From NCBI RefSeq assembly GCF_022965805.1, contig NW_027331428.1, positions 115,245 to 179,244 on the forward strand: a stretch of 64,000 bases of DNA, read 5' to 3'. The notes below the pieces were generated by a model. The model ran no database searches and was not told the origin of the DNA. It saw only the letters and a program-made list of their open reading frames with translations. Made by a program: the position numbers and the translations under genes. Every line of letters starts with the position of its first letter. Positions within the stretch are counted from its first letter, which is position 1. Source of the DNA: Primulina eburnea (lineage: Eukaryota > Streptophyta > Magnoliopsida > Lamiales > Gesneriaceae). Shown in pieces: positions 314 through 27,461 of this stretch.

Positions 314-1656
314 TGTAGTGACCCGTTCCAGAATCACCTACTAATCAGAACTTAAGCATGCAATTAACTTAATAAAACTGAATCAGATAAACAGCGGAAA
401 AACAACATATACAGCCCGATCGAATCAGTAAGTACGAATACTAAAACAACCAAATCAAACTAAATCCCAAGAATAAAATACCAGCAACTACAGGTCAACC
501 CCTGCTAGCTCCCTGTCCTCTCCCTCCTGGACCGTCCAACCTGAGACCTGCCCCATCGAATAGGGTGTCCAAAACAGAGATAAACCGAGGACGTGAGCAT
601 AAAACGCTCAGTACCGAAAGAATGAGTATACAAGACTATGACATGCATGTATGCAAAATGTACTGGATACCAGGGTCTGGGTATAACGAAAAACTGCTCA
701 GGCAAATGACGTCAAGGTATGTAGCACTCTGCGCCGTCGCACCAGGAGGTGGCTCCCATACCATAAACCTGTGGATATACCGGTATCCTGACCACCGTCG
801 GCCAACGGGGTCCAACCATCCACAACAACCGAGGGCTGAGCACCCTCTGAACAGGCTATCTCAAAAGATAAACAGGCCCAACATGATTATGCAAATGCCG
901 CATAATAAACCATGCATCATATGTCAGATAATAATGCAACACATAAACATGCAACACATAGTAAAGCATACTCAACCAGGATATCTCGGATAGTACTTCC
1001 GTACCTCAAACCAGTAGATCCTAGTAATCAGCCCTAGAATCAAGCCTACAATCCAAGTGATACCATATCACTAAACCACATCTAAAAGCCTTAACTAGAC
1101 TAATAGATACTTCCAAATCTCAAGGGAACCTAGAACCATACCTGCGTCCGTAGTCAGCCCACTGATGCCGCTAGCTCCCAACTAGAGCACAGCTCCGCTA
1201 CAAAGCCAGTAGCTCCCTGCTAGTGCCCGAACCTCGGGAAAAGCTAGAAACCCATCAGAAACGACTAAAACGCTCTGGAACTCTCGGAATTGGTAATTGA
1301 AAAGTGAAGCCTCGCGCCTCTATTTATAGACGACGATCGGACGATCCGATCCACTTCGGAAGATCCGATCCTGTGCACTTCGGACGATCCGATCCACTTC
1401 GGACGTTCCGAACTCTGCATGTCTTCCACGTGTCCAGCCACCTGTCTTCGGACGATCCGAACCTCTTCGGACGATCCGAACCCTGACACGGTCTACTGTT
1501 GACAAGACTCGGTCTGACACCGAACCGAACGGTCCATCCGAACCCACTTCGGACGATCCGAACCTCTTCGGACGGTCCGATCCTGGTTCGTTCCTCCCGA
1601 ACTCGCAGAATATAATTAATCCAATAATTACTCAATTTAGGCATCGGGATACTACA
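314..1656 (-). repeat. 5' LTR of element D (1343 bp)
   Basis: On the minus strand the repeat starts TGTAGTATCCCG at 1656 and ends GGTCACTACA at 314, with TG...CA termini and short TGTAGT/ACTACA inverted ends. The primer site follows directly and satellite DNA precedes it. It holds a TATA box with a palindromic motif array upstream. Frames up to 142 codons on the plus strand across 565-993 show no known domain and are taken as chance. Confidence 0.85.
1321..1600 (-). promoter_or_regulatory. Predicted promoter of element D LTR: TATA box plus palindromic array
   Basis: TATAAATA is read on the minus strand at 1328-1321. Upstream of it (1330-1600) are about eight copies of short inverted repeats of the form TTCGGAnnnTCCGAA. 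The layout and even the downstream AGAGGCGCGAGG match the LTR of element B, so transcription probably starts just after the TATA box. Function is inferred from position. Confidence 0.6.
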
Positions 1657-3034
1657 CAACCTAACGACTTCTCTAAAGAACAAATCCGCAATGTTTGAAG
1701 CATCATCGGTTTTATGACAAGCTATAAAATGTGCCATCTTAGAGAATCTATCCACAACAACAAAAATAGAATCCCTACCCTTATTAGTCCTAGGCAAACC
1801 CAAAATAAAGTCCATAGAAATGTCAATCCAAGTTCTTTTTAAGAATAGCACGCAAAAGTGTTCCCAAAGTTCTATTGACAACTTCAGTTTGTCCATCCGT
1901 TTGAGGATGACAAGTAGTAGAAAACAACAATTTTGTGCCAAGTTTAGCCCATAAAGTCTTCCAAAAGTAACTCAAGAATTTAACATCGCGACCAGAAACA
2001 ATAGTCCTAGGCATGCCATGCAACCTAACGACTTCTCTAAAGAACAAATCCGCAATGTTTGAAGCATCATCGGTTTTATGACAAGCTATAAAATGTGCCA
2101 TCTTAGAGAATCTATCCACAACAACAAAAATAGAATCCCTCCCCTTCTTAGTCCTAGGCAACCCCAAAATAAAGTCATAGAAATGTCAATCCAAGTTCTT
2201 TTTAAGAATAGCACGCAAAAGTGTTCCCAAAGTTCTATTGACAACTTCAGTTTGTCCATCCGTTTGAGGATGACAAGTAGTAGAAAACAACAATTTTGTG
2301 CCAAGTTTAGCCCATAAAGTCTTCCAAAAGTAACTCAAGAATTTAACATCGCGACCAGAAACAATAGTCCTAGGCATGCCATGCAACCTAACGACTTCTC
2401 TAAAGAACAAATCCGCAATGTTTGAAGCATCATCGGTTTTATGACAAGCTATAAAATGTGCCATCTTAGAGAATCTATCCACAACAACAAAAATAGAATC
2501 CCTCCCCTTCTTAGTCCTAGGCAACCCCAAAATAAAGTCCATAGAAATGTCAATCCAAGTTCTTTTTAAGAATAGCACGCAAAAGTGTTCCCAAAGTTCT
2601 ATTGACAACTTCAGTTTGTCCATCCGTTTGAGGATGACAAGTAGTAGAAAACAACAATTTTGTGCCAAGTTTAGCCCATAAAGTCTTCCAAAAGTAACTC
2701 AAGAATTTAACATCGCGACCAGAAACAATAGTCCTAGGCATGCCATGCAACCTAACGACTTCTCTAAAGAACAAATCCGCCATGTTTGAAGCATCATCGG
2801 TTTTATGACAAGCTATAAAATGTGCCATCTTAGAGAATCTATCCACAACAACAAAAATAGAATCCCTCCCTTATTAGTCCTAGGCAACCCCAAAATAAAG
2901 TCCATAGAAATGTCAATCCAAGTTCTTTTTAAGAATAGCACGCAAAAGTGTTCCGAAAGTTCTATTGACAACTTCAGTTTGTCCATCCGTTTGAGGATGA
3001 CAAGTAGTAGAAAACAACAATTTTGTGCCAAGGT

Positions 3035-3385
3035 TTAGCCCATAAAGTACTTCCAAAAGTAACTCAAGAATTTAACATCGCGACCAGAACTAATAGTCCT
3101 AGGCATGCCATGCAACCTAACGACTTCTCTAAAGAACAAATCCGCAATGTTTGAAGCATCATCGGTTTTATGACAAGCTATAAAATATGCCATCTTAGAG
3201 AATCTATCCACAACAACAAAAATAGAATCCCTCGCCTTCTTAGTCCTAGGCAACCACGAAATAAAGTCCATAGAAATGTCAATCAAATTCTTTTTAAGAA
3301 TAGCACGCAAAAGTGTTCCCAAAGTTCTATTGACAACTTCAGTTTGTCCATCCGTTTGATGATGACAAGTAGTAGAAAACAACAA
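3035..3385 (-). other. Satellite segment with in-frame monomer joint
   Basis: Here one base is missing at the joint (near 3283), so KKNL of one unit runs in frame into IDISMDF of the next. The segment also carries the variant [13 protein letters not shown], which recurs 5100 bases further on at 8135-8497. The frame is an accident of monomer length, with no initiation context or intact active site. Confidence 0.6.
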
Positions 3386-6300
3386 TTTTGTGCCAAGTAT
3401 TAGCCCATAAAGTATTCCAAAAGTAACTCAAGAATTTAACATCGCGACCAGAAACAATAGTCCTAGGCATGCCATGTAACCTAACGACTTCTCTAAAGAA
3501 CAAATCCGCAATGTTTGAAGCATCATCGGTTTTATGACAAGCTATAAAATGTGCCATCTTAGAGAATCTATCCACAACAACAAAAATAGAATCCCTCCCC
3601 TTCTTAGTCCTATGCAACCCCAAAATAAAGTCCATAGAAATGTCAATCCAAGTTCTTTTTAAGAATAGCACGCAAAAGTGTTCCCAAAGTTCTATTGACA
3701 ACTTCAGTTTGTCCATCCGTTTGAGGATGACAAGTAGTAGAAAAACAACAATTTAGTGCCAAGTTTAGCCCATAAAGTATTCCAAAAGTAACTCAAGAAT
3801 TTAACATCGCGACCAGAAACAATTAGTCCTAGGCATGCCATGCAACCTAACGACTTTCTAAAGAACAAATCCGCCATGTTTGAAGCATCATCGGTTTTAT
3901 GACAAGCTATAAAATGTGCCATCTTAGAGAATCTATCCACAACAACAAAAATAGAATCCCTCCCCTTCTTAGTCCTAGGCAACCCCAAAATAAAGTCCAT
4001 AGAAATGTCAATCCAAGTTCTTTTTAAGAATAGCACGCAAAAGTGTTCCCAAAGTTCTATTGACAACTTCAGTTTGTCCATCCGTTTGAGGATGACAAGT
4101 AGTAGAAAACAACAATTTTGTGCAAGGTTTAGCCCATAAAGTCTTCCAAAAGTAACTCAAGAATTTAACATCGCGACCAGAAACAATAGTCCTAGGCATG
4201 CCATGCAACCTAACGACTTCTCTAAAGAACAAATCCGCAATGTTTGAAGCATCATCGGTTTTATGACAAGCTATAAAATGTGCCATCTTAGAGAATCTAT
4301 CCACAACCACAAAAATAGAATCCCTCCCCTTCTTAGTCCTAGGCAACCCCAAAATAAAGTCCATAGAAATGTCAATCCAAGTTCTTTTTAAGAATAGCAC
4401 GCAAAAGTGTTCCCAAAGTTCTATTGACAACTTCAGTTTGTCCATCCGTTTGAGGATGACAAGTAGTAGAAACCAACAATTTTGTGCCAAGTTTAGCCCA
4501 TAAAGTATTCCAAAAGTAACTCAAGAATTTAACATCGCGACCAGAAGTATTAGTCCTAGGCATGCCATGCAACCTAACGACTTCTCTAAAGAACAAATCC
4601 GCAATGTTTGAAGCATCATCGGTTTTATGACAAGTTATAAATGTGCCATCTTAGAGAATCTATCCACAACAACAAAAATAGAATCCCTACCCTTATTAGT
4701 CCTAGGCAACCCCATAATAAAGTCCATAGAAATGTCAATCCAAGTTTTTTTTAAGAATAGCACGCAAAAGTGTTCCAAAGTACTATTGACAACTTCAGTT
4801 TGTCCATCCGTTTGAGGATGACAAGTAGTAGAAAACAACAATTTTGTGCCAGGTTTAGCCCATAAAGTCTTCCAAAAGTAACTCAAGAATTTAACATCGC
4901 GAACAGAAACAATAGTCATAGGCATGCCATGCAACCTAACGACTTCTCTAAAGAACAAATCCGCAATGTTTGAATGCATCATCGGTTTTATGACAAGCTA
5001 TAAAATGTGCCATCTTAGAGAATCTATCCACAACAACAAAAATAGAATCCCTCACCCTTCTTAGTCCTAGGCAACCCCAAAATAAAGTCCATAGAAATGT
5101 CAATCCAAGTTCTTTTTAAGAATAGCACGCAAAAGTGTTCCCAAAGTTCTATTGACAACTTCAGTTTGTCCATCCGTTTGAGGATGACAAGTAGTAGAAA
5201 AAAACAATTTTGTGCCAAGTTTAGCCCATAAAGTCTTCCAAAAGTAACTCAAGAATTTAACATCGCGACCAGAAACAATAGTCCTAGGCATGCCATGCAA
5301 CCAAACGACTTCTCTAAAGAACAAATCCGCAATGTTTGAAGCATCATCGGTTTTATGACAAGCTATAAAATGTGCCATCTTAGAGAATCTATCCACAACA
5401 ACAAAAATAGAATCCCTACCCTTCTTAGTCCTAGGCAACCCCAAAATAAAGTCCATAGAAATGTCAATCCAAGTTCTTTTTAAGAATAGCACGCAAAAGT
5501 GTTCCCAAAGTTCTATTGACAACTTCAGTTTGTCCATCCGTTTGAGGATGACAAGTAGTAGAAAACAACAATTTTGTGTCAAGTTTAGCCCATAAAGTCT
5601 TCCAAAAGTAACTCAAGAATTTAACATCGCGACCAGAAACAATAGTCCTAGGCATGCCATGCAACCTAACGACTTCTCTAAAGAACAAATCCGCAATGTT
5701 TGAAGCATCATCGGTTTTATGACAAGCTATAAAATGTGCCATCTTAGAGAATCTATCCACAACAACAAAAATAGAATCCCTCCCCTTCTTAGTCCTAGGC
5801 AACCCCAAAATAAAGTCCATAGAAATGTCAATCCAAGTTCTTTTTAAGAATAGCACGCAAAAGTGTTCCCAAAGTTCTATTGACAACTTCAGTTTGTCCA
5901 TCCGTTTGAGGATGACAAGTAGTAGAAAACAACAATTTTGTGCCAAGTTTAGCCCATAAAGTATTCCAAAAGTAACTCAAGAATTTAACATCGCGACCAG
6001 AAACAATAGTCCTAGGCATGCCATGCAACCTAACGACTTCTCTAAAGAACAAATCCGCAATGTTTGAAGCATCATCGGTTTTATGACAAGCTATAAAATG
6101 TGCCATCTTAGAGAATCTATCCACAACAACAAAAATAGAATCCCTCCCCTTCTTAGTCCTAGGCAACCTCAAAATAAAGTCCATAGAAATGTCAATCCAA
6201 GTTCTTTTTAAGAATAGCACGCAAAAGTGTTCCCAAAGTTCTATTGACAACTTCAGTTTGTCCATCCGTTTGAGGATGACAAGTAGTAGAAAACAACAAT

Positions 6301-9300
6301 TTTGTGCCAAGTTTAGCCCATAAAGTCTTCCAAAAGTAACTCAAGAATTTAACATCGCGACCAGAAACAATAGTCCTAGGCATGCCATGCAACCTAACGA
6401 CTTCTCTAAAGAACAAATCCGCAATGTTTGAAGCATCATCGGTTTTATGACAAGCTATAAAATGTGCCATCTTAGAGAATCTATCCACAACAACAAAAAT
6501 AGAATCCATCCCCTTCTTAGTCCTAGGCAACCCCAAAATAAAGTCCATAGAAATGTCAATCCAAGTTCTTTTTAAGAATAGCACGCAAAAGTGTTCCCAA
6601 AGTTCTATTGACAACTTCAGTTTGTCCATCCGTTTGAGGATGACAAGTAGTAGAAAAACAACAATTTTGTGCCAAGTTTAGCCCATAAAGTATTCCAAAA
6701 GTAACTCAAGAATTTAACATCGCGACCAGAAACAATTAGTCCTAGGCATGCCATGCAACCTAACGACTTCTCTAAAGAACAAATCCGCAATGTTTGAAGC
6801 ATCATCGGTTTTATGACAAGCTATAAAATGTGCCATCTTAGAGAATCTATCCACAACAACAAAAATAGAATCCCTACCCTTATTAGTCCTAGGCAAACCC
6901 AAAATAAAGTCCATAGAAATGTCAATCCAAGTTCTTTTTAAGAATAGCACGCAAAAGTGTTCCCAAAGTTCTATTGACAACTTCAGTTTGTCCATCCGTT
7001 TGAGGATGACAAGTAGTAGAAAACAACAATTTTGTGCCAAGTTTAGCCCATAAAGTCTTCCAAAAGTAACTCAAGAATTTAACATCGCGACCAGAAACAA
7101 TAGTCCTAGGCATGCCATGCAACCTAACGACTTCTCTAAAGAACAAATCCGCAATGTTTGAAGCATCATCGGTTTTATGACAAGCTATAAAATGTGCCAT
7201 CTTAGAGAATCTATCCACAACAACAAAAATAGAATCCCTCCCCTTCTTAGTCCTAGGCAACCACAAAATAAAGTCCATAGAAATGTCAATCCAAGTTCTT
7301 TTTAAGAATAGCACGCAAAAGTGTTCCCAAAGTTCTATTGACAACTTCAGTTTGTCCATCCGTTTGAGGATGACAAGTAGTAGAAAACAACAATTTTGTG
7401 CCAAGTTTAGCCCATAAAGTATTCCAAAAGTAACTCAAGAATTTAACATCGCGACCAGAAACATTAGTCCTAGGCATGCCATGCAACCTAACGACTTCTC
7501 TAAAGAACAAATCCGCAATGTTTGAAGCATCATCGGTTTTATGACAAGCTATAAATGTGCCATCTTAGAGAATCTATCCACAACAACAAAAATAGAATCC
7601 CTACCCTTCTTAGTCCTAGGCAACCCCAAAATAAAGTCCATAGAAATGTCAATCCAAGTTCTTTTTAAGAATAGCACGCAAAAGTGTTCCCAAAGTTCTA
7701 TTGACAACTTCAGTTTGTCCATCCGTTTGAGGATGACAAGTAGTAGAAACCAACAATATTTGTGCCAAGTTTAGCCCATAAAGTCTTCCAAAAGTAACTC
7801 AAGAATTTAACATCGCGACCAGAAACAATAGTCCTAGGCATGCCATGCAACCTAACGACTTCTCTAAAGAACAAATCCGCCATGTTTGAAGCATCATCGG
7901 TTTTATGACAAGCTATAAAATGTGCCATCTTAGAGAATCTATCCACAACAACAAAAATAGAATCCCTACCCTTATTAGTCCTAGGCAACCCCAAAATAAA
8001 GTCCATAGAAATTTCAATCCAAGTTCTTTTTAAGAATAGCACGCAAAAGTGTTCCCAAAGTTCTATTGACAACTTCAGTTTGTCCATCCGTTTGAGGATG
8101 ACAAGTAGTAGAAAACAACAATTTTGTGCCAGGTTTAGCCCATAAAGTACTTCCAAAAGTAACTCAAGAATTTAACATCGCGACCAGAAACAATAGTCTT
8201 AGGCATGCCATGCAACCTAACGACTTCTCTAAAGAACAAATCCGCAATGTTTGAAGCATCATCGGTTTTATGACAAGCTATAAAATATGCCATCTTAGAG
8301 AATCTATCCACAACAACAAAAATAGAATCCCTCGCCTTCTTAGTCCTAGGCAACCACGAAATAAAGTCCATAGAAATGTCAATCAAAGTTCTTTTTAAGA
8401 ATAGCACGCAAAAGTGTTCCCAAAGTTCTATTGACAACTTCAGTTTGTCCATCCGTTTGATGATGACAAGTAGTAGAAAACAACAATTTTGTGCCAAGTA
8501 TTAGCCCATAAAGTATTCCAAAAGTAACTCAAGAATTTAACATCGCGACCAGAAACAATAGTCCTAGGCATGCCATGCAACCTAACGACTTCTCTAAAGA
8601 ACAAATCCGCAATGTTTGAAGCATCATCGGTTTTATGACAAGCTATAAAATGTGCCATCTTAGAGAATCTATCCACAACAACAAAAATAGAATCCCTACC
8701 CTTCTTAGTCCTAGGCAACCCCAAAATAAAGTCCATAGAAATGTCAATCCAAGTTCTTTTTAAGAATAGCACGCAAAAGTGTTCCCAAAGTTCTATTGAC
8801 AACTTCAGTTTGTCCATCCGTTTGAGGATGACAAGTAGTAGAAAACAACAATTTTGTGCCAAGTTTAGCCCATAAAGTATTCCAAAAGTAACTCAAGAAT
8901 TTAACATCGCGACCAGAAACATTAGTCCTTAGGCATGCCATGCAACCTAACGACTTCTCTAAAGAACAAATCCGCCATGTTTGAAGCATCATCGGTTTTA
9001 TGACAAGCTATAAAATGTGCCATCTAGAGAATCTATCCACAACAACAAAAATAGAATCCCTCCCCTTCTTAGTCCTAGGCAACCCCAAAATAAAGTCCAT
9101 AGAAATGTCAATCCAAGTTCTTTTTAAGAATAGCACGCAAAAGTGTTCCCAAAGTTCTATTGACAACTTCAGTTTGTCCATCCGTTTGAGGATGACAAGT
9201 AGTAGAAAACAACAATTTTGTGCCAGGTTTAGCCCATAAAGTCTTCCAAAACTAACTCAAGAATTTAACATCGCGACCAGAAACAATAGTCCTAGGCATG

Positions 9301-10515
9301 CCATGCAACCTAATGACTTCTCTAAAGAACAAATCCGCAATGTTTGAAGCATCATCGGTTTTATGACAAGCTATAAAATGTGCCATCTTAGAGAATCTAT
9401 CCACAACAACAAAAATAGAATCCCTACCCTTATTAGTCCTAGGCAACCCCAAAATAAAGTCCATAGAAATGTCAATCCAAGTTCTTTTTAAGAATAGCAC
9501 GCAAAAGTGTTCCCAAAGTTCTATTGACAACTTCAGTTTGTCCATCCGTTTGAGGATGACAAGTAGTAGAAAACAACAATTTTGTGCCAGGTTTAGCCCA
9601 TAAAGTCTTCCAAAAGTAACTCAAGAATTTAACATCGCGACCAGAAACAATAGTCCTAGGCATGCCATGCAACCTAACGACTTCTCTAAAGAACAAATCC
9701 GCAATGTTTGAAGCATCATCGGTTTTATGACAAGCTATAAAATGTGTCATCTTAGAGAATCTATCCACAACAACAAAAATAGAATCCCTCGCCTTCTTAG
9801 TCCTAGGCAACCCCAAAATAAAATCCATAGAAATCTCAATCCAAGTTCTTTTTAAGAATAGGACGCAAAATTGTTCCCAAAGTTCTATTGACAACTTCAG
9901 TTTGTCCATCCGTTTGAGGATGACAAGTAGTAGAAACCAACAATTTTGTGCCAAGTTTAGCCCATAAAGTCTTCCAAAATTAACACAAGAATTTAACATC
10001 GCGACCAGAAACAATAGTCCTAGGCATGCCATGCAACCTAACGACTTCTCTAAAGAACAAATCCGCAATGTTTGAGGCATCATGGGTTTTATGACAAGCT
10101 ATAAAATGTGCCATCTTAGAGAATCTATCCACAACAACAAAAATAGAATCCCTACCCTTCTTAGTCCTAGGCAACCCCAAAATAAAGTCCATAGAAATGT
10201 CAATCCAAGTTCTTTTTAAGAATAACACGCAAAAGTGTTCCCAAAGTTCTATTGACAACTTCAGTTTGTCCATCCGTTTGAGGATGACAAGTAGTAGAAA
10301 AACAACAATTTTGTGCCAAGTTTAGCCCATAAAGTATTCCAAAAGTAACTCAAGAATTTAACATCGCGACCAGAAACATTAGTCCTAGGCATGCCATGCA
10401 ACCTAACGACTTCTCTAAAGAACAAATCCGCAATATTTGAAGCATTATCGGTTTTATGACAAGCTATAAATGTGCCATCTTAGAGAATCTATCCACAACA
10501 ACAAAAATAGAATCC

Positions 10516-10520
10516 CTACC
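10516..10520. repeat. Target site duplication of A1, left copy (CTACC)
   Basis: CTACC directly precedes the LTR and is repeated after the 3' LTR at 17824-17828. Removing A1 and one copy restores an ordinary satellite monomer. Confidence 0.95.
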
Positions 10521-10649
10521 TGTAATGCCCGAGATTTAATTATTAAAATCAGACGTTGATTAATTGTCACGATTGAACTCAAATGAACCGATATGACAAG
10601 GTTGGGCGTCGTTGCAATTGTTAGCCAAGTTTTTTTGGACAGAGACCTC

Positions 10650-10889
10650 GGCGCTCGAGCGGTAGAAAAGCACCGCCCGAGCGCCAATGCATCGCAAATT
10701 ATTGTTCGGACAGAAGGTTCGGCGCCCGGGCGGTAGATTTTGACTGCCCGAGCGCCAAGGTGCCTTCGGGAAATTCTTATACCGAGAGTGCCGCGCTCGA
10801 GCGGTACTTTCTTACCGCTCGAGCGCCGACCCAATTTCGAGGAAAGAAGCCACGTTTCAAAACCATGCAAGTTGATATATATATATAAA
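10650..10889 (+). promoter_or_regulatory. Predicted A LTR promoter: three GC-rich hairpins and TATA box
   Basis: Inverted repeats lie at 10650-10685, 10721-10756 and 10793-10826. Each has arms of about 14 bases built on CTCGAG or CCCGGG cores (for example GCGCTCGAGCGGTA pairing across a 6-base loop in the third, perfectly). A TATATAAA box follows at 10882-10889. The layout suggests an upstream element array ahead of the transcription start, but this is inference from position. Confidence 0.6.
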
Positions 10890-11369
10890 CGTTGGTTTCC
10901 TTCAGACGCTAGCAGCAAGAGCCGAGGGTTTACTCCCAGATATCCTTACGCCTTTTTGCTTAGAGATTTGAGAATTGCGAACGATCCGTCCGTCTTATTT
11001 TAAATCCGACTTCAGTACTGTGTTCCTATCAACACAGGCTACAACTGGAAATTGGGAATGGACCGAGACAGAGTCGGGACTTCTTCTTCTTCTGAGCGAG
11101 AAGATAAAGGTATAAGTCAATGTGGTATTGGGAGATGGACTTGAGTTGGTTTAGACTTGGGTTTCCCTAAATCACATACTTTACTTTATTGCATTGATAT
11201 TTGCATTGATTGATTGATATAATTGTTTTCTTGAGTTATAGATTACATGTATTCGAAGAGTAATCTTATGACAGAAGTGCCGTTAGTGGTGGGATCAGCA
11301 CGGGCACATTGCACGATGTCATAAGATGGTGTATTGGCGGATGTGCCAAAGACTGTCACTAGATGTTGG

Positions 11370-11780
11370 ATTATCGATGTGGATAGATTGATAGCTTCTT
11401 CTATTACTGTTGGTTGATATTATATCGATGTGGATAGACGTATAGCTTCTTCTATTACTGTTAATTGATAGTATATCGATGTGGATAGATTCATCGTTCC
11501 TTCTATTACTGTTAATCGATGTTATATCGATGTGGATAGAATCGGACTTTGTTCTATTACTGGTAATCTATATCATATCAATGTGGATAGAATCAGGGCT
11601 TGCTCTATTACTGGTAATCGATAATATATCAATGTGGATAGAATCAGGGCTTCGTCTATTACTGTTAATCGATACTATATCGGTGTGGATAGAACTGGAG
11701 TCTTTTCTATTACTGTTAATCGATACTATATCGACGTGGATAGAACTGGAGTCTTTTCTATTACTGTTAGTCGATATATA
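11370..11780 (+). repeat. 51-bp minisatellite inside A1 5' LTR (8 units)
   Basis: The core GTGGATAGA recurs every 51 bases exactly (ggatag at 11381, 11432, 11483, 11534, 11585, 11636, 11687, 11738). Units carry TCTATTACTG and a near-palindromic ATCGATA segment. The period is a multiple of three, so long but meaningless frames stay open on both strands. Confidence 0.95.
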
Positions 11781-11985
11781 CATGCCGACGTCTGGAACCG
11801 GGATCCCTAGACTAGGATTGAGTCTTGTCTGAATTATGTAGCTACGAGTATTGTTGACAGCGTGCTATTGATTATGTTTCAGATTTGTTACATAGGATTG
11901 TTACCTGATTACATGCTTTATATTTGTTATATGATTGCATGTTTCATTGATTTATACTGGGAGTTATTCTCACCGGTTTATCCGG

Positions 11986-12019
11986 CTGTTGTCTTGTCTG
12001 TATGTGTACTTGACAACAG
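11986..12019 (+). other. Conserved hairpin near the 3' end of the A LTR
   Basis: CTGTTGTCTTG pairs with CTTGACAACAG over a 12-base loop (TCTGTATGTGTA). The same loop and stem occur in element B, where a T-A pair replaces the C-G pair at stem position 8. An imperfect CCGG...CCGG pair lies just upstream. Role unknown; possibly RNA processing or packaging. Confidence 0.55.
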
Positions 12020-12306
12020 GTGGGACAGGATAAGGGTCAGGAAGAGAACGAGGCTGGACTAGATAGCGTGGAGATCTGGGCTTCAGAAGCAACTTAGGAT
12101 TCAGTACTGATATGTAATTGAACCTAGTTGGATTATTGTAGATCATACAATAATTATATGTATGTTTAATATGTAATTTGAATTTAATTACATTACGTTT
12201 CCGCTTTGCATTTTAAAAAAAAAATTTTAGACCCTGTTTTACTAATTGATTAATTAGTCCCAATGATGATTAAGAACTTGATTAGCGTCCGGGTCCCCAC
12301 AACAGG

Positions 12307-12318
12307 TGGTATCAGAGC
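12307..12318 (+). other. Primer binding site of A1
   Basis: TGGTATCAGAGC, complementary to initiator Met-tRNA, lies five bases (ACAGG) after the LTR. Confidence 0.92.
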
Positions 12319-12772
12319 TGTAGGTCCTTGAACTGTGGTTCCTTAGCACTGAGATAGAAAAGAGTGAGCGGGGTAGACTGAGTTTTCTTACCTGCGTTTG
12401 ATTGCTAGCATGTGATTGATTATAATGTGGATTACATTGTGTATGCTAGCATGATATGATGCTTTATTGCCTTGATTTATATGGCACATGAGTAAATATA
12501 ATGTTGAAATTACATTGTATATACTAAGATTTCAGTATGTGTTATTGTTTAGAAAGCTACATGTTACCTGAATATCTGAGTTGATTTGGTAATATGTATT
12601 ATTTGAAACTGGATCAGAACCGAGTCTGAATCAGAGGTATATGATCAGAGGAGGGCTGGGACAGATTGTATAGATTGTGTACTAATCTGGTTGATATTCA
12701 GATATACCGCCTCGAAGAATTTCAGAAAAGGGTAGTACTTCGTCTGAACAGATAGATATATCAGAAACTCAG

Positions 12773-13602
12773 ATGGCAATAAAGATGAAAGAATTTCAGT
12801 TATTTCAGCCGCCGCTTCTGAGTGTTACAGAGACATCTGAAGAGTGCCAGAATTGGGTAGATGACATCGAAATACTGTTTGATTTACTTGATTGTACAAA
12901 TGAACAGAGAGTTAAATTGGTATTCCACCAGTTACGAGAGGCTGCCAGAAGTTGGTGGATTACAATTAAAGGAATGTTAGAACATGGAGGTACAGTGATT
13001 TCGTGGGAAACATTCAGAACTAATTTTATCGAAGATTTTTCTCAGTTTCCTATCGGGAGGACAAAAGAGCAGAATTTGAGAATTTAAGACAAGGCCCATT
13101 GAATATTGATGAATATACTGCTAAATTCTCTACTTTACTGCGTTTTGCTCCTCATTTAGCTGGGAATGATGAAGCTGTAGTGAATCAGTTCATCAGAAGA
13201 TTGAATTCGGAGGTAGTTGCACTGATGAATATGCAGCGACCTTATCATTTTGCTGATATCTTGAGTAGAGCGAAGAGAGCTGAGGCGAGTCTGATTAGAC
13301 AGCTAGGGAGGTTGTGTGTGAAGCAGCCTCAGACACAGCAGTCCCCTCTCCGATTTGATCAAGGCAGTACGAGTGGAAAGCAAGATTTGCTGAAAGCTCG
13401 GAAGAAGCCATTCAAGAAGCTAGGAAGCGATTCATCTAGCTCTAGTGGTTCCAGTCCGAGTTATACTGGAGTGTATTGCAGAACTTGCGGAGGAAGACAT
13501 TCCACAGAGCAATGCCAGGGAGTGACTGGTAGTTGCCGTATCTGTAGACAGCCGGGACACTTTGCTAAAGTTTGTCCCCAGAGACGGTCCCGAAGATCTT
13601 AG
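12773..13602 (+). pseudogene. gag: gag of A1, frameshifted
   Basis: The reading frame encodes a Gag capsid-type protein (motifs CQNWVDDIEILFDLLD, RSWWITIKGMLEHGG, LLRFAPHLAGNDEAVV) followed by a Ser-rich linker and a CCHC zinc knuckle ([14 protein letters not shown], preceded by CRTCGGRHSTEQC). It is clearly homologous to the N-terminal part of the B1 polyprotein. Compared with the A2 copy, one A is missing near 13021, which shifts the frame; the first part stops at 13087 and the second part continues to 13602. The position equivalent to B1's start codon reads ATA in both A copies, so translation would have to begin at the internal ATG at 12773. The protein ends shortly after the zinc knuckle, with no fused protease. 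Such a Gag could at most help package element RNA, and this copy is broken. Confidence 0.85.
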
Positions 13603-16160
13603 GGAACAACGTTCAATTGAGAAAAAAACCCACAATCCATAACATGTACTATTCTTTATGATTCTATTGCATATGTATTGATATATACTAATGCATTTGT
13701 TAAGAATATCTTTGACTGAGTTGCATGGAGATATGCTATATCTGTTGGGTTGGTTGTAGTGTAGTATTGATGTCCTTGCTTGTTGAGGAAATGTTGATAT
13801 CAGAGATTTCTGTATATAGTGTATACTACAGTAAGATGAGAATGAAATAGAGATAGATTATGATGTACTTGTGTTTTCTGATTTGAACGCATTATTGATA
13901 TGTATATGCTGAACAGGTACAGACATATTGTAGAATTTTTCCAGAAATGGTAAGATTCAGACCAGAGATAACTGATCAGTGGAGATACCACGATAAGGAT
14001 TCTAGATTTAGAATTCCTTCGATATCTGTATTGTATATGACTCGATTAGTACAGAAAGGAGCAGATTGCATCCTTATGTATTCAGTAGATCCACTGAAAT
14101 CGAGTTTAGTATTGACAGATTGGTCAGTATTATACAAGTTGGCTGATGTTTGCCTAGATAAGATTTCAGAATGATGTATCAGAAAGATAAATTTCAGAAT
14201 TGAATTGCGATCAGGTATTGTTTGTATAGTAGATTTAGTACAGAATGGTATTGATTATACAGAATAATACAAAATGAATTGAAAGAATATTTGAAAGATC
14301 ATATTAAATATTCTGAGAATTATGATTCTTGTATACAGAAATTGTTCAGATATGGATTTTGTTTGAAACAGATTGTATTCAGAATATATGATATCTGATG
14401 TTAGTATACTGATTGATTTTGAGACAGTTGATATTGTGATCAGTGACTGATCAGATACCGATATCAGAAAGATCAGAAAGTCAGAATTGTCAGAGATTGA
14501 TATTATATGAGTTGACAGATTATCTGATATGCTTGTGTTTTGAACTGTTTGAGAATTATTGCTTCTAGATCAGTATTTTATACAGATTGTATTGTTTGGG
14601 GAGCATATTATATTTGTAGATGATATATAGCAGTTGATCGGAATGGCATGAAGATCTGATTGATTTGTCAGAATCGATAGTATTGTTAGAACTTACAATC
14701 CTATATATTTACTAGATTAGTATAGATTATTGTTATTCTGAATCAGTATTGATACAGATTTTATGAACCGTTGAAAGTATATACAGTTTAGCTGGTATCA
14801 GAAATGAATTCGAGAATTTCAACAGTTCAGAAACGTGATCAGAGTGGTCAGAACAGTATTTCGATAATCAGAGCAGAGTATCGGTCAGAAAAACAGATAT
14901 GTGATTGTGTGTTTTGTATTAGACTGATTGTGTTATGATATCAGAATGTTTCAGAGTTGTATAACATAATTGATATTGATAATCAGAGCCGAATACCAGG
15001 TAGGTATTTTTTTTAAATTTTATTATTAACTGATTTGTTTACACCGAACAGTTTGAATCTTAAATTACAGATAGTGTCAGAAATGCATTGTAGTGGATTC
15101 AGTGTTCCTTTTGCTGACTAAGAATGTATGAGATTCGAATAGATCGGTATGATATAGACAGATTAGATCAGTCGTGACAGAATTTGTACAGAAATGTTGG
15201 CAGAAATTGTACTGATATGTCTGAATCGCTAACAGAGAAGACAGAAAAATAGAAATCAGAAGATTATTACAGAATTTGTATATTTCTGAATAGAAATGGG
15301 AGTGCATTTCTATGGCTTTAGTAATGACATTACCGCCATTTTTCTTCAGATGGTAAGATAATATGATTATGATTGACAGATTGTTCAATCTATATCAATT
15401 AGTTTGTACCAGATAACATACAAACAGAACCAGATGACATTGATTGATGTCAGAACATAGTCAGAGTGACTAGAATGTAGAAGTAGACTATATCAGATTG
15501 TGATTTTGATTAAGTTTGCAATTATGGCAGATCATACCATAAGTTATTTTGCAGATTATTTACAGATTGACAGACAGTCAGAGTGTATTACCCAGATATT
15601 GGAAGATGTCCAGAGAACTGTAGTGCTGGATGTTAGCACTAATTGATATGATTTATTATCAATGCGTAACAATAACTATCAGCTTATCAGATGGGTAATG
15701 AGATAGTTATAGACAAGATAGTATACGGTGAATACTACAGATTTCTTTTGAAAAAAAAAAAAAATTTAGAAGGAAGATGAAGATAGTTCAGAATGGACAG
15801 ATTTAAGAAACCAATGTCGGATGATGACGATTGGTCTTTGGAATTAAAGATTGTATAGGTCCTGATTGGGATAAACAGATTGGATAACAATTACTGGTAT
15901 TGTTTTGGTATAAATTGTACTTGGTTTATACGGATGTTGTATAACCAGCATGGCAAAAATTAATTTTGTCAGAGTTAGTTGAAAAGTATCATGATAGTAT
16001 ACGTCATGAATTCTCATTCCAGATTTGAAATCAGAGGTTGATACAAGAAAGGGATTTCAGAACGGGTTCATTGAGATGAGCTTTGATTTAAACTCTATTA
16101 TACATCTCTTCTGTTTTATCTGTATGTGTTGCTTGTGAGTTCGAGGACGAACTCAGATCT
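13603..16160 (+). pseudogene. pol: Decayed pol of A1
   Basis: This AT-rich stretch has no long frame but aligns piecemeal with B1 pol in the correct order. Near 13675-13700 the protease LIDTGA region has become LIYTNA-like, losing the catalytic Asp. At 13947-14174 a 75-codon frame matches the protease-RT linker (MVRFRPEITDQW against [12 protein letters not shown]). At 14616-14624 a Val-Asp-Asp remains of the RT FIDD motif. At 15562-15630 the segment around the integrase catalytic Glu and the QTLEDMLRA motif can still be recognised. Between these are many deletions and stops. The A2 copy has the same decayed sequence, so the damage predates the duplication. Confidence 0.75.
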
Positions 16161-16174
16161 AAGAGGGGGAGAAA
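16161..16174 (+). other. Polypurine tract of A1
   Basis: AAGAGGGGGAGAAA directly precedes the 3' LTR, the expected plus-strand primer. The same tract precedes the 3' LTRs of B1 and A2. Confidence 0.9.
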
Positions 16175-17823
16175 TTTAATGCCCGAGATTTAATTATTAT
16201 AATCAGACGTTGATTAATTGTCATGATTGAACTCAAATGAACCGATATGACAAGGTCGGGCGTCGTTGCAATTGTTAGCCAAGTTTTTTTGGACAGAAAC
16301 CTCGGCGCTCGAGCGGTAGAAAAGCACCGCCCGAGCGCCAATGCATCGCAAATTATTGTTCGGACAGAATGTTCGGCGCCCGGGCGGTAGATTTTGACCG
16401 CCCGAGCGCCAAGGTGCCTTCGGGTACTCCCAGACGCTAGCCGCAAAGCCGAGGGTTTACTCCAGATATCCTTACGCCTTTTGCTTAGAGATTTGAGATT
16501 GCGAACGATCCGTCCGTCTGATTTTAAATCCGACTTCAGTACTGTGTTCCTATCACCACAGGCTACAACTGGAAATGGGAATGGACCGAGACAGAGTCGG
16601 ACTTCTTCTTCTTATTGAGCGAGAAGATAAAGGTATAAGTCAATGTTGGTATTGGGAATGGACTTGAGTCGGTTTAGACTTGGGTTTCCCTAAATCAATA
16701 CTTTACTTTATTGCATTGATATTTGCATTGATTGATTGATATACTTGTTTTCTTGAGTTATAGATTACAGGTATTAGAAGAGTAATCTATGACAGAAGTG
16801 CCGTTAGTGGTGGGATCACCACGGGCACATTGCACGATGTCATAAGATGGTGTATTGGCGGATGTGCCAAAGACTGTCACTAGATGTTGGATTATCGATG
16901 TGGATAGATTGATAGCTTCTTCTATTACTGTTGGTTGATATTATATCGATGTGGATAGACGTATAGCTTCTTCTATTACTGTTAATTGATAGTATATCGA
17001 TGTGGATAGATTCATCGTTCCTTCTATTACTGTTAATCGATGTTATATCGATGTGGATAGAATCGGACTTTGTTGTATTACTGGTAATCGATATCATATC
17101 AATGTGGATAGAATCAGGGCTTGCTCTATTACTGGTAATCGATAATATATCAATGTGGATAGAATCAGGGCTTCGTCTATTACTGTTAATCGATACTATA
17201 TCGGTGTGGATAGAACTGGAGTCTTTTCTATTACTGTTAATCGATACTATATCGACGTGGATAGAACTGGAGTCTTTTCTATTACTGTTAGTCGATATAT
17301 ACATGCCGACGTCTGGAACCGGGATCCCTAGACTAGGATTGAGTCTAGTCTGAATTATGTAGCTACGAGTATTGTTGACAGCGTGCTATTGATTATGTTT
17401 CAGATTTGTTACATAGGATTGTTACCTGATTACATGCTTTATATTTGTTATATGATTGCATGTTTCATTGATTTATACTGGGAGTTATTCTCACCGGTTT
17501 ATCCGGCTGTTGTCTTGTCTGTATGTGTACTTGACAACAGGTGGGACAGGATAAGGGTCAGGAAGAGAACGAGGCTGGACTAGATAGCGTGGAGATCCGG
17601 GCTTCAGAAGCAACTTAGGATTCAGTACTGATATGTAATTGAACCTAGTTGGATTATTGTAGATCATACAATAATTTTATGTATGTTTAATATGTAATTT
17701 GAATTTAATTACATTACGTTTCCGCTTTGCATTTTAAAAAAAAAAATTTTAGACCCTGTTTTACTAATTGATTAATTAGTCCCAATGATGATTAAGAACT
17801 TGATTAGCGTCCGGGTCCCCACA
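16175..17823 (+). repeat. 3' LTR of A1 (1649 bp, with promoter deletion)
   Basis: It starts TTTAATGCCCGAG, with the usual TG changed to TT, and ends GGGTCCCCACA. About 130 bases present in the 5' LTR (between GTGCCTTCGGG and CAGACGCTAG) are missing near 16425-16432. That removes the third hairpin and the TATA box. The minisatellite (about 16890-17300, 8 units) and the conserved hairpin (17507-17540) are kept. Confidence 0.92.
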
Positions 17824-20800
17824 CTACCCTTCTTAGTCCTATGCAACCCCAAAATAAAGTCCATAGAAATGTCAATCCAAGTTCTTTTTAAGAATAGCAC
17901 GCAAAAGTGTTCCCAAAGTTCTATTGACAACTTCAGTTTGTCCATCCGTTTGAGGATGACAAGTAGTAGAAAACAACAATTTTGTGCCAAGTTTAGCCCA
18001 TAAATTCTTCCAAAAGTAACTCAAGAATTTAACATCGCGACCAAAAACAATAGTCCTAGGCATGCCATGCAACCTAACGACTTCTCTAAAGAACAAATCC
18101 GCAATGTTTGAAGCATCATCGGCTTTTATGACAAGCTATAAAATGTGCCATCTTAGAGAATCTATCCACAACAACAAAAATAGAATCCCTACCCTTATTA
18201 GTCCTAGACAACCCCAAAATAAATTCCATAGAAATGTCAATCAAGTTCTTTTTAAGAATAGCACGCAAAAGTGTTCCCAAAGTTCTATTGACAACTTCAG
18301 TTTGTCCATCCGTTTGAGGATGACAAGTAGTAGAAAACAACAATTTTGTGCCAAGTTTAGCCCATAAAGTCTTCCAAAAGTAACTCAAGAATTTAACATC
18401 GCGACCAAAAACAATAGTCCTAGGCATGCCATGCAACCTAACGACTTCTCTAAAGAACAAATCCGCAATGTTTGAAGCATCATCGGTTTTATGACAAGCT
18501 ATAAAATGTGCCATCTTAAAGAATCTATCCACAACAACAAAAATAGAATCCCTCCCCTTCTTAGTCCTAGGCAACCCCAAAATAAAGTTCATAGAAATGT
18601 CAATCCAAGTTCTTTTTAAGAATAGCACGCAAAATTGTTCCCAAAGTTCTATTGACAACTTCAGTTTGTCCATCCGTTTGAGGATGACAAGTAGTAGAAA
18701 ACAACAATTTTTTGCCATGTTTAGCCCATAAAGTATTCCAAAAGTAACTCAAGAATTTAACATCGCGACCAGAAACATTAGTCCTAGGCATGCCATAGAA
18801 CCTAACGACTTCTCTAAAGAACAAATCCGCAATTTTTAAAGCATCATCGGTTTTATGACAAGTTATAAATGTGCCATCTTAGAGAATCTATCCACAACAA
18901 CAAAAATAGAATCCCTACCCTTCTTAGTCCTAGGCAACCCCAAAATAAAGTCCATAGAAATGTCAATCCAAGTTCTTTTTAAGAATAGCACGCAAAAGTG
19001 TTCCCAAAGTTCTATTGACAACTTCAGTTTGTCCATCCGTTTGAGGATGACAAGTAGTAGAAACCAACAATTTTGTGTCAAGTTTAGCCCATAAAGTCTT
19101 CCAAAATTAACACAAGAATTTAACATCGCGACCAGAAACAATAGCCCTAGGCATGCCATGCAACCTAACGACTTCTCTAAAGAACAAATCCGCAATGTTT
19201 GAAGCATCATCGGTTTTATGACAAGCTATAAAATGTGCCATCTTAGAGAATCTATCCACAACAACAAAAATAGAATCTCTCCCCTTCTTAGGCCTAGGCA
19301 ACCCCAAAATAAAGTCCATAGAAATATCAATCCAAGTTCTTTTTACGAATAGCACGCAAAAGTGTTCCCAAAGTTCTATTGACAACTTCAGTTTGTCCAG
19401 CCGTTTGAGGATGACAAGTAGTAGAAAACAACAATTTTGTGCCAGGTTTAGCCCATAAAGTCTTCCAAAAGTAACTCAAGAATTTAACATCGCGACCAGA
19501 AACAATAGTCCTAAGCATGCCATGCAACCTAACGACTTCTCTAAAGAACAAATCCGCAATGTTTGAAGCATCATCTGTTTTACGACAAGCTATAAAATGT
19601 GCCATCTTAGAGAATCTATCCACAACAACAAAAATATAATCCCTACCCTTATTAGTCCTAGGCAACCCCAAAATAAAGTCCATAGAAATTTCAATCCAAG
19701 TTCTTTTTAAGAATAGCACGCAAAAGTGTTCCCAAAGGTCTATTGACAACTTCAGTTTGTCCATCCGTTTGAGGATGACAAGTAGTAGAAAACAACAATT
19801 TTGTGCCAAGTTTTAGCCCGTAAAGTCTTCCAAAAGTAACTCAAGAATTTAACATCGCGAACAAAAACAATAGTCTTAGGTATGCCATGAAACCTAACGA
19901 CTTCTCTAAAGAACAAATCCGCAATGTTTGAAGCATCATCGGTTTTATGACAAGCTATAAAATATGGCATCTTAGAGAATCTATCCACAACAACAAAAAT
20001 AGAATCCCTCGCCTTCTTAGTCCTAGGCAACCACGAAATAAAGTCCATAGAAATATCAATCCAAGTTCTTTTTAAGAATAGCACGCAAAAGTGTTCTCAA
20101 AGTTCTATTGACAACTTCAGTTTGTCCATCCGTTTGAGGATGACAAGTAGTAGAAAACAACAATTTTGTGCAAAGTATAGCCCATAAAGTATTCCAAAAG
20201 TAACTCAAGAATTTAACATCGCGACCAGAAACATTAGTCCTAGGCATGCCATGTAACCGAACGACTTCTTTAAAGAACAAATCCACAATGTTTGAAGCAT
20301 CATTGGTTTTATGACAAGCTATAAATGTGCCATCTTAGAGAATCTATCCACAACAACAAAAATAGAATCCCTACCCTTCTTAGACCTATGCAACCCCAAA
20401 ATAAAGTCCATAGAAATGTCAATCCAAGTTCTTTTTAAGAATAGCACGCAAAAGTGTTCCCAAAGTTCTATTGACAGTTTCAGTTTTTCCATCCGTTTGA
20501 GGATGACAAGTAGTAGAAAACAACAATTTTGTGCCAAGTTTAGCCCATAAATTCTTCCAAAAGTAACTCAAGAATTTAACATCGCGACCAAAAACAATAG
20601 TCCTAGGCATGCCATGCAACCTAACGACTTTTCTAAAGAACAAATCCGCAATGTTTGAAGCATCATCGGTTTTATGACAAGCTATAAAATGTGCCATCTT
20701 AAAGAATCTATCCACAACAACAAAAATAGAATCCCTCCCCTTCTTGGTCCTAGGCAACCCCAAAATAAAGTTCATCGAAATGTCAATCCAAGTTCTTTTT

Positions 20801-20914
20801 AAGAATAGCACGCAAAAGTGTTCCCAAAGTTCTATTGACAACTTCAGTTTGTCCATCCGTTTGAGGATGACAAGTAGTAGAAAACAACAATTTTGTGCCA
20901 TGTTTAGCCCATAA
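17824..20914 (-). repeat. Satellite array 2 (~8.5 monomers)
   Basis: The array resumes in phase after the A1 target duplication (17824-17828, CTACC) and runs to the left end of element C. The CATAGAAAT-type landmark occurs nine times (17862 to 20773) with a mean step near 364. Orientation and content match array 1. A set of linked variants (CTTAAAGAATC, AAGTTCAT, CCATGTTTAGCCC) appears at about 18511-18720 and again about 20694-20903. The spacing is 2183 bases, six monomers, so there is local higher-order structure. The C insertion falls in such a variant unit. Confidence 0.94.
18116..18718 (-). other. 200-codon open frame across two satellite monomers
   Basis: One missing base at the joint (near 18241) puts KKNL in frame with IDISMEF, giving a frame through nearly two integrase-core units. 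The catalytic position reads FGRD in place of SDRD. It is taken as a by-product of monomer length variation. Confidence 0.6.
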
Positions 20915-21022
20915 TGTAATAGCCGAGCCCGGTGTACGGTACGATTTAAGTTTCGTATGTTATTTGGGTTTTATGATTAGATGTTTAGAGTTGTGTTTTG
21001 GACCATAGTATTATTGGTTATT
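20915..21022 (+). repeat. 5' LTR of C1, first part (before B1)
   Basis: It is identical in layout to the start of the 3' LTR at 35111. It ends with GGTTATT, where B1 inserted; the matching 3' LTR reads uninterrupted through GGTTATTATTG. Confidence 0.9.
21018..21022. repeat. Target site duplication of B1, left copy (TTATT)
   Basis: TTATT precedes B1 and is repeated at 29018-29022 after it. The empty site is seen intact in the C1 3' LTR near 35211. Confidence 0.92.
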
Positions 21023-21269
21023 TGTAATGCCAGAGCAATGATTGACATGTACGAATTCATAGATATGTTGTGAAGATTGTACATAACCATAAGAAATAAG
21101 AAATGATATCATATATGATTTTCAGTATGATTATGACTTGTTAGGACAGAAGTACTGTATTGGATTATGATTGAGAATATGATAGTGTTGATATCTATTG
21201 AGAATTAGATTGACCGGCATCGAGAATATTGGAGTATTTATATTTCGGTGAGACCGGAAGGACCGAACC

Positions 21270-21522
21270 GAGATCGGAACGTACGATCAGAGTTCGCACC
21301 GTCCGTTCGGAGTTCGGAGCGTCCGAGCCAGGTGGCTGGACACATGGATGGCATGCAATAGTTCGGATCGACCGATCGTAGTTCGGATCATCCGAGACAG
21401 TTGGCTGGAGACGTGGAAGACATGCAGGATTCGGAACGTCCGAAGTGAGTTCGGAGCGTCCGAAGTATGTCAGATCGGATCGTCCGAAGTAGATCGGATC
21501 TTCCGATCGTTGTCTATAAATA
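21270..21522 (+). promoter_or_regulatory. Predicted B LTR promoter: palindromic TTCGGAnnnTCCGAA array and TATA box
   Basis: Several copies of near-palindromes such as TTCGGAACGTCCGAA, TTCGGAGCGTCCGAA and TCGGATCTTCCGA precede TATAAATA (21515-21522). The same module occurs in inverted orientation in element D. Transcription probably starts about 30 bases after the TATA box (inference). Confidence 0.65.
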
Positions 21523-22257
21523 GAGGCGCGAGGTCTCAGTTTAGAGTCATTCCTACGAGGTCTCAGTAGAATTAGAAGTGTTAGAAAGTCATTTCTATTT
21601 CAGATTCATCTTCTCGACTGTGACAGCAATTCTACGACGGAAGGTATACTACATGCTTTGTTTTGGGGAATCACGACTCAAATGAGATCACATTTGAGTT
21701 TCCCAACTAAAATCACATACGAGTTTTATTGTTTATATCTTGATATAGGTATTATTATAGATTTGTTTATATGCAAATCTCGTTATGCTTTGTTTACAGA
21801 TCATGTTACATTGCATTAGATGTTTATTAGAACTTGTATTCAATTCCTATTATGCTTTGTTTACAGATCATGTTACATTGCATTAGATGATTATGCTTGT
21901 TTACAGATTTTGTATTCATGCATTAAGATAGGACAGTCTGGAGATCAGGCAGACTTCTAGACGTTCGGTTCTATCCCAGCTTAGGGGAAGATCACCCCCC
22001 TATTGTAGACGTGGATACAGATCAGGCCGAAGTCTAGGAATAAGACGTACCGTCACCCCGATTGGGAGGGTAGGTGATAGATCGTCTTATTCACACCGGG
22101 ATCCCTAGAGTTTTAGTCGAGTCGCATCTAGACATGATTAGGCTCGCATTTCATGATTTTATATGAATGACATTCATATCAGCATGTTTCATGTTTTATA
22201 GTATTTATATGCATGTTCACATGTTTATACTGGGATTTGTTCTCACCGGTTTTCCGG

Positions 22258-22291
22258 CTGTTGTTATGTCTGTATGTGTGCATAACAACAG
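22258..22291 (+). other. Conserved hairpin near the 3' end of the B LTR
   Basis: CTGTTGTTATG pairs perfectly (11 bp) with CATAACAACAG across the loop TCTGTATGTGTG. Its counterpart in A LTRs keeps the loop and changes one stem pair compensatorily (T-A to C-G). Confidence 0.6.
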
Positions 22292-22582
22292 GTGGGGCAG
22301 GATTTGGGTCGAGACAGAGATGATCGTGTTAGCGTGGAAATCTCGGGCCTAGCAGATGGACCAGTAGTTGTCTGTTATTATGTACTGTCTTTTATTACTG
22401 GTTAAGGAAAACATACAGAATAATACATGTATTTGATGTTTGTATGTTGTATTTAAATAAAGAACTCATGCTCGTTTGTTTACATTAGATTTAAGGTAAA
22501 AAGCGAAAAATTGACCCACGTTTTTAATAACAATCCATTTAATCCCAAGAAAAAGAATTAGAGCCCGGGTCCTCACAACAGG

Positions 22583-22594
22583 TGGTATCAGAGC
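22583..22594 (+). other. Primer binding site of B1
   Basis: TGGTATCAGAGC, initiator Met-tRNA type, lies five bases after the LTR end. Confidence 0.93.
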
Positions 22595-22828
22595 CGATAG
22601 TTCCGTTAGACTGAAATAGGATAGAATGAGCGGGGTAGATCGAGTCTTCTTCCTTGCTTGATGATGTGCTAGCATGATTATTGCTTTCTTATTACATGTT
22701 GTTTGGTATTTGATTAATTTCAGCATGTGATTGACTGAATCAGAACCGATTCTAGATCAGAGGTAACTGACTAGATGATGGCTGAGACAGTTGTATATCT
22801 TGTTTACTAATCAGTTGGATTATTAGAT

Positions 22829-27364: not shown

Positions 27365-27448
27365 TATGAGTATGTATTCAGTTTAGATTATCAAACTGTT
27401 TTAGATACTTTGTATGGTTACTTCAGTTCGAGGACGAACTTCTGTCTT

Positions 27449-27461
27449 AGAGGGGGAGAAA
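27449..27461 (+). other. Polypurine tract of B1
   Basis: AGAGGGGGAGAAA immediately precedes the 3' LTR. Confidence 0.92.

What the first reader, a model, noticed from the sequence alone, without database searches (positions are those of the whole stretch)
1657..10520. A satellite DNA whose monomer is the catalytic core of a retrotransposon integrase
Seen: about 58 head-to-tail ~364-bp units in three arrays, all in one orientation, each reading on the minus strand as a contiguous Ty3/gypsy integrase core from DISMDF to LRAILKKNL, then joining straight to the next DISMDF. Known: plant satellites sometimes arise from LTR or untranslated parts of retrotransposons; a monomer that is nearly all integrase coding sequence is unusual. 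Inference: a fragment of pol was captured and amplified as a tandem repeat, and it is now a major component of this heterochromatin.
Basis: partly seen in the sequence, partly recalled or inferred. Interest (0 to 1): 0.9.

Follow-up and report, generated by a model that had tools for sequence, protein, structure and literature searches.

The report
Satellite DNA made from retrotransposon integrase
A 364-base piece of a jumping gene's integrase has been copied head to tail dozens of times in what looks like plant DNA, forming non-coding satellite-like repeats; this is a neat but not unprecedented way for such repeats to arise, and part of the stretch looks badly assembled.

Summary
Head-to-tail 364-bp units lie at 1657-10520, 17824-20914 and 48777-58011 (24.4, 8.5 and 25.4 units), all on the minus strand. 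Each is almost wholly a Ty3/gypsy integrase core; 53 full units average 96.2% identity.

Three corrections. (1) It does not code: 364 = 3x121+1, so the integrase frame meets a stop just past each junction; the second catalytic aspartate is absent from 53 of 53 units and variants show no synonymous excess. (2) The arrays are not three independent amplifications. Arrays 1 and 2 are one array split by an LTR element with a CTACC target duplication. Array 3 is colinear with array 1 and abuts the same element at the same unit position. (3) The tract between (36198-~49034) looks unpolished, perhaps a false join.

Best reading: a defective integrase fragment was tandemised, probably by short-homology joining, and expanded by unequal exchange; other LTR elements invaded later. 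Retrotransposon-derived satellites, including coding-region ones, are known; ten searches of a partial library showed me no integrase-core case. Genome-wide abundance and chromosomal place are untested: the genome search did not complete.

The parts
314..1656 (-). LTR of a further retrotransposon (L), TGTAGTGACCCG...GGGATACTACA, abutting array 1; its body runs off the window to the left
   Evidence: Sequence read; position. The strand is inferred from a primer-binding-site-like TGATACCA just left of 314 (motif recalled).
1657..10520 (-). Array 1: 24.35 integrase-core units of 364 bp
   Evidence: block repeat of 14 units
10516..10520 (.). Target-site duplication CTACC, left copy (right copy 17824-17828)
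10521..17823 (+). LTR element E1 inserted in the array; its LTR holds a 51-bp tandem repeat (11372-11777, 16893-17298)
   Evidence: primer-binding-site-like TGGTATCAGAGC at 12307
17824..20914 (-). Array 2: 8.5 units, the continuation of array 1 beyond E1
20915..21022 (+). Start of the 5' LTR of element T2, interrupted by T1
   Evidence: Matches the T2 3' LTR at 35111-35214, 98%
21023..29017 (+). LTR element T1 nested in T2's 5' LTR (TTATT on both sides); open gag-pol frame 22811-27364; LTRs 99.87% identical
29018..36197 (+). Rest of T2; its 3' LTR (from 35111) stops at 36197, about 500 bp short of the length of its 5' LTR, which runs to about 30518
36198..49034 (+). Error-rich tract: copy of 20860-33695 (to 48781) followed by noisy array sequence (48777-49034); probable unpolished fill or false join
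48777..58011 (-). Array 3: 25.4 units, colinear with array 1; its first 258 bp belong to the noisy tract
58012..64000 (+). LTR element E2, close copy of E1 at the same unit position after CTACC; runs off the window

Best explanation
A non-coding satellite-type tandem repeat founded by one fragment of about 360 bp of a plant Ty3/gypsy integrase gene, covering the catalytic core from just before DISMDF to LRAILKKN(L). The fragment's ends were joined head to tail, probably at a few shared bases, and the array grew and stayed similar by unequal exchange or gene conversion. Other LTR retrotransposons inserted later. The array itself encodes nothing; if it does anything it does so as DNA, for example as heterochromatin. 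Shown here: tandem structure, source domain, broken frame, lost catalytic residue, absence of protein-level constraint among units, a 14-unit block repeat, a later insertion with target duplication. Inferred: the short-homology joint, unequal exchange as the mechanism, and any heterochromatic role.
For: Period and orientation. Integrase core only: rve in Pfam, 81-88% identity to 12 plant-type integrases. Frame break and stops. Second catalytic position Gly in 46, Val in 6, Ile in 1 of 53 units, Asp in 276 of 285 motif matches in the fetched proteins. Distinct variants 27 synonymous, 115 non-synonymous, 4 stops against 34.5, 106.5 and 5.0 expected without selection, spread evenly over codon positions (51, 50, 45). 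Units 14 apart in array 1 share most rare variants, mean 0.78; 10 of 2000 permutations reached this at any lag. E1 inserted with CTACC duplicated.
Against: The source element of this genome was not seen, so the joint is inferred. Genome-wide copy number is unknown, so 'satellite' in the strict sense (long, abundant arrays) is unproven. 16 of 53 units are 364 bp long without a stop in the first 118 codons, and stop-free runs reach 292 codons where indels shift the frame. Mean identity is nearly flat over lags 1-11, which alone would fit a single recent burst, such as insertion of rolling-circle copies, as well as unequal exchange.
Confidence: 0.8

Rival explanations
1. The tandem array as such is an assembly artefact; the genome holds one or a few integrase fragments.
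For: The window does contain a tract that looks like an unpolished fill, 36198-49034, and a T2 LTR that stops short at 36197.
Against: Array 1 is clean: in 23 full units (8377 bases) 12 singleton substitutions and 9 singleton indels. Units carry shared variants in a 14-unit order, and E1 sits in the array with a normal target duplication; none of this is expected from a looping assembler.
Confidence: 0.05
2. A translated or domesticated poly-integrase gene.
For: 16 of 53 units are open for the first 118 codons; stop-free runs of up to 292 codons.
Against: The frame shifts at each junction and meets stops; one catalytic residue is absent from 53 of 53 units; no synonymous excess, 27 seen against 34.5 expected.
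Confidence: 0.01
3. The array began as tandem subrepeats inside one retrotransposon, as in Ogre elements of Lathyrus, and then expanded.
For: That route is documented for other satellites (passages of PMC7004042).
Against: The array edges seen here abut LTRs of L, E1, E2 and T2, or the suspect join at 48777, rather than one element's body; the integrases of T1 and T2 are only 48 and 47% identical to the unit. The unit comes from a conserved coding domain, not a variable non-coding region.
Confidence: 0.08
4. About array 3: it is a real tandem or segmental duplication of array 1 plus E1, rather than the second haplotype placed end to end by the assembler.
For: Array 3 is colinear with array 1 (best diagonal 16 rare shared variants; 1 of 2000 permutations reached it) and E2 sits where E1 sits.
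Against: The link between the two copies is the noisy tract, which copies 20860-33695, starts after a cut-short LTR and ends inside array 3 with a step in quality. A second haplotype would show the same colinearity.
Confidence: 0.35

Closest known systems
Wheat/Aegilops 250-bp centromeric repeat with similarity to the Cereba gag gene (Cheng and Murata 2003; known to me only through PMC3648361 and PMC9659126, the paper itself not held)
   Same: Tandem repeat drawn from a Ty3/gypsy coding region
   Different: gag, not integrase; 53% amino acid similarity is reported for it, against 81-88% identity of our unit to intact integrases
Rye E3900 (gag ORF) and Chenopodium CficCl-61-40 (CACTA transposase ORF), both in the table of PMC9659126
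   Same: Satellite carrying part of a transposon protein-coding region
   Different: Other genes; neither is listed there as integrase
Maize CRM1TR and CRM4TR (PMC3648361, abstract and Discussion)
   Same: Local tandem repeats from Ty3/gypsy elements, later invaded by other elements, with short-homology joining proposed
   Different: Units come from LTR and UTR of CRM elements
Lathyrus FabTR satellites from Ogre elements (PMC7004042, passages)
   Same: Retrotransposon origin, expansion to long arrays
   Different: Come from short tandem repeats already present inside the element, downstream of gag-pol

Membership tests
Retrotransposon-derived satellite DNA | Head-to-tail arrays of one unit in one orientation | tested here: met
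Retrotransposon-derived satellite DNA | Unit homologous to a retrotransposon segment | tested here: met
   rve domain and 81-88% identity to 12 plant-type integrases
Retrotransposon-derived satellite DNA | Non-coding, evolving as DNA | tested here: met
   Frame break, stops, lost catalytic residue, no synonymous excess
Retrotransposon-derived satellite DNA | Concerted evolution or block duplication among units | tested here: met
   96.2% mean identity; 14-unit block repeat
Retrotransposon-derived satellite DNA | Long, abundant arrays across the genome | not tested
Retrotransposon-derived satellite DNA | Heterochromatic or centromeric location | not testable with these tools
   Needs FISH or ChIP
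CRM-derived tandem repeats (CRM1TR/CRM4TR kind) | Unit from LTR and UTR of a CRM element | tested here: not met
   Unit is integrase core; source given in PMC3648361
Satellites from tandem repeats inside Ogre elements | Arrays at a fixed place inside the element | tested here: not met
   Edges in this window abut LTRs of other elements or a suspect join; only this window was seen
Source lineage CRM chromovirus | Grouping with CRM integrases or a CRM-type integrase C-terminus | tested here: inconclusive
   No lineage-labelled references were held; full-length relatives mostly lack a precomputed Pfam chromodomain, but the unit holds only the core; CRM resemblance is recalled

The most novel reading that the evidence does not exclude
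A centromeric or pericentromeric satellite of a Gesneriaceae-like plant was built from the catalytic core of a centromere-seeking (CRM-type) retrotransposon's integrase, so that an enzyme's coding sequence of about two nucleosome lengths became chromosome-structural DNA.
Probability: 0.15. Interest if true: 0.6.

Novelty: new member of a known kind. Interest (0 to 1): 0.35.

Why it matters
It adds a clean case in which the most conserved coding part of a retrotransposon, rather than its LTR or untranslated region, founded a tandem repeat, which supports the view that any part of an element can do so. The single shared joint and the lost catalytic site would make the founding event traceable once source elements of the same genome are compared. 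It is also a practical warning: such arrays can be annotated as integrase genes, and the window shows how they can disturb an assembly.

Tried and rejected
Poly-integrase gene: rejected on frame, stops, lost catalytic residue and lack of synonymous excess.

Three independent arrays: rejected. Arrays 1 and 2 are one. Array 3 lies on one diagonal with array 1; of its 22 full units 12 have their best match within one place of the diagonal, 5 off it, and 5 share no rare variant with array 1.

Independent insertion of E1 and E2: disfavoured because both follow CTACC at the same unit position; a site preference is not excluded. A first impression that the two 5' LTRs differ by 4.7% (ts 36, tv 23 of 1258) came from aligning 8 against 9 copies of the 51-bp repeat. 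The longer alignment gives 16 differences in 1446 bases over the first 1.5 kb.

I first took 20915 for the start of T1's LTR; it is the start of T2's 5' LTR and T1 begins at 21023. The row 'T1 5LTR vs 3LTR' mixes two LTRs and is not used.

The satellite joint elsewhere: no exact match in viral contigs or genome contigs; these hold viral and prokaryotic records, so a plant satellite was not expected there. Of 6955 protein hits 120 were listed; in the flanks that a script could print for them I saw no satellite joint, but many rows had no flank printed. Relatives by locus: 0 of 27 pattern matches confirmed in viral contigs, 5 of 20 in genome contigs, of which only L001 is close (85%).

Literature: ten searches. 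I saw no integrase-core satellite and no description of this repeat in a Gesneriaceae plant in the listings and passages; the listings were capped and the library lacks most subscription papers. Passages of PMC9241371, PMC5278356, PMC12371157, PMC6444444 and PMC10587573 brought no such case.
Full report
What is there. The window holds 364-bp head-to-tail units at 1657-10520, 17824-20914 and 48777-58011, all on the minus strand: 24.35, 8.49 and 25.37 units by length. One-unit BLAST gave 64 rows, one of them a 53-bp stray at 36198-36250. I kept the 53 rows that cover a whole unit for all unit counts; partial rows were dropped. Mean pairwise identity of the 53 is 96.2%. The junction motif, up to 2 mismatches, occurs 55 times, all minus, and in none of 100 shuffles.

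What the unit is. The consensus translates to 121 residues with Pfam rve over residues 3-95, 33.8 bits against a cut-off of 32.6. It is 81-88% identical to 12 plant-type integrases aligned with it, and 48 and 47% to the integrases of elements T1 and T2 in the window. A script compared it with 145 full-length polyproteins and printed the best 14 and the last 5; among the 14 best, identity is 85.0-87.5%, and those with names are from Miscanthus, Setaria, Lolium and Coffea. In all 14 the protein runs on past both ends of the unit, whereas in the array the sequence returns to its own start. The host is probably Gesneriaceae or close to it: the first 27 of 51 hits to the T1 polyprotein are named Henckelia or Primulina, the best at 69% identity over 59% of the query, from a search that scored only the candidates sharing most words. 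That inference rests on one element.

It does not code. At 364 bp each crossing shifts the frame by one, and the integrase frame meets a stop just past KKNLD. In the tandem consensus the longest stop-free run is 170 codons in each frame; in the real arrays runs reach 208, 210 and 292 codons where indels shift the frame. Of 53 units 16 are 364 bp long without a stop in the first 118 codons. Of the three catalytic positions (assigned from recall of the DDE integrase family), the first is Asp in 49 of 53 and the third Glu in 53 of 53, but the second is Gly in 46, Val in 6 and Ile in 1. In the fetched proteins 276 of 285 motif matches have Asp there, with Gly in 2. Distinct variants among units are 27 synonymous, 115 non-synonymous and 4 stops, against 34.5, 106.5 and 5.0 expected without selection. 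The founder was probably defective before it was amplified.

How it was probably made. Relatives read PW-x-DISMDF at the upstream end and KN-x-K-x-W-E at the downstream end, and the plant-like element L001 has CCTTGG just before the core. The satellite joint AAGAACTTGGATTGAC is what one expects if the two ends met at about four shared bases, CTTG. This is inference, because the source element of this genome was not seen. In array 1 units 14 apart share the most rare variants, mean 0.78; 10 of 2000 permutations reached that at any lag. In array 3 the best lag is 15, and in arrays 1 and 2 together 25, then 14. Mean identity hardly depends on distance over lags 1-11. Block duplication by unequal exchange with homogenisation fits; a burst from circular copies followed by block duplication is not excluded.

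Architecture. Element E1 (10521-17823) lies in the array with CTACC on both sides, so arrays 1 and 2 are one array, older than E1. Array 2 ends at 20914, where T2 begins; T1 is nested in T2's 5' LTR with TTATT on both sides. Array 3 ends at 58011 against E2, which matches E1 at 98.99% over 5067 columns and sits at the same unit position after CTACC. Rare shared variants put array 3 on one diagonal with array 1: the best diagonal sums to 16, reached by 1 of 2000 permutations. Of 22 array-3 units 12 have their best match within one place of the diagonal, 5 lie off it, and 5 share no rare variant with array 1. So array 3 plus E2 is a duplicate, or the second haplotype, of array 1 plus E1. A 4.7% difference between their 5' LTRs in one alignment comes from aligning 8 against 9 copies of a 51-bp repeat; the longer alignment has 16 differences in 1446 bases.

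Quality. Tract 36198-48781 copies 20860-33695, with 308 substitutions in 12,545 aligned bases (2.46%; ts 123, tv 185) and 229 gap events in the copy, 181 of one base, against 34 in the other. It begins where T2's 3' LTR stops at 36197, about 500 bp short of its 5' LTR. The noise runs 258 bp into array 3, where identity to the consensus is 92.4% with 9 gap openings, then steps to 99.5% at 49035. T1's two LTRs are 99.87% identical over 1556 columns, while the two copies in this tract differ by 8.8%; ageing after a duplication would not give that easily. Against this, the noise is uneven: 39198-40197 has only 3 substitutions and 5 gap events. I read the tract as unpolished gap-filling sequence; a real but badly polished duplication is not excluded.

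What is known. A review tabulates LTR, UTR, gag-ORF and transposase-ORF sources of satellites and concludes that any part of an element may serve (passages of PMC9659126). Another names gag or pol domains (section 5 of PMC12628747). CRM1TR and CRM4TR come from LTR and UTR (PMC3648361, abstract and Discussion). Lathyrus satellites come from repeats inside Ogre elements (PMC7004042, passages). In ten searches of a partial library I saw no integrase-core satellite. So this is a new member of a known kind with an unusual source segment. A CRM-lineage source would be more interesting. It rests on recall and on the lack of a precomputed Pfam chromodomain in most listed full-length relatives; CRM integrases vary in exactly that part (passages of PMC3059260), and the unit lacks it. 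That 364 bp is near two nucleosome lengths, a common satellite size, is recalled.

What could not be done.

Noticed in passing
window 36198-49034: Noisy, deletion-rich copy of 20860-33695 between two cleaner stretches; looks like an unpolished gap fill or false join.
   Followed up: yes
window 11372-11777, 16893-17298, 58861-59320: A 51-bp tandem repeat of 8, 8 and 9 copies inside the LTRs of E1 and E2.
   Followed up: partly
window 21023-29017 within 20915-36197: Element T1 with a 1517-codon open gag-pol frame and LTRs 99.87% identical, so apparently young, nested in the 5' LTR of T2.
   Followed up: partly
window 1337-1584, 21289-21506, 27729-27946, 42956-43165: LTRs of these elements carry GC-richer short tandem motifs of the type TCGGACGATCCGA, 19-69 bp periods; not explained.
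   Followed up: no
window 60239-61162: E2 keeps a 307-codon gag frame (Retrotrans_gag) while no frame of 200 codons or more is listed inside E1 at 10521-17823, so E may be non-autonomous or decayed.
   Followed up: no
L001 2-3982: A contig filed under Bradyrhizobium sp. MOS002 (NZ_PYFX01000053.1) encodes a plant-type Ty3/gypsy polyprotein, likely contamination; the best named relative in the list is from Lolium multiflorum at 95% in the region searched.
   Followed up: partly
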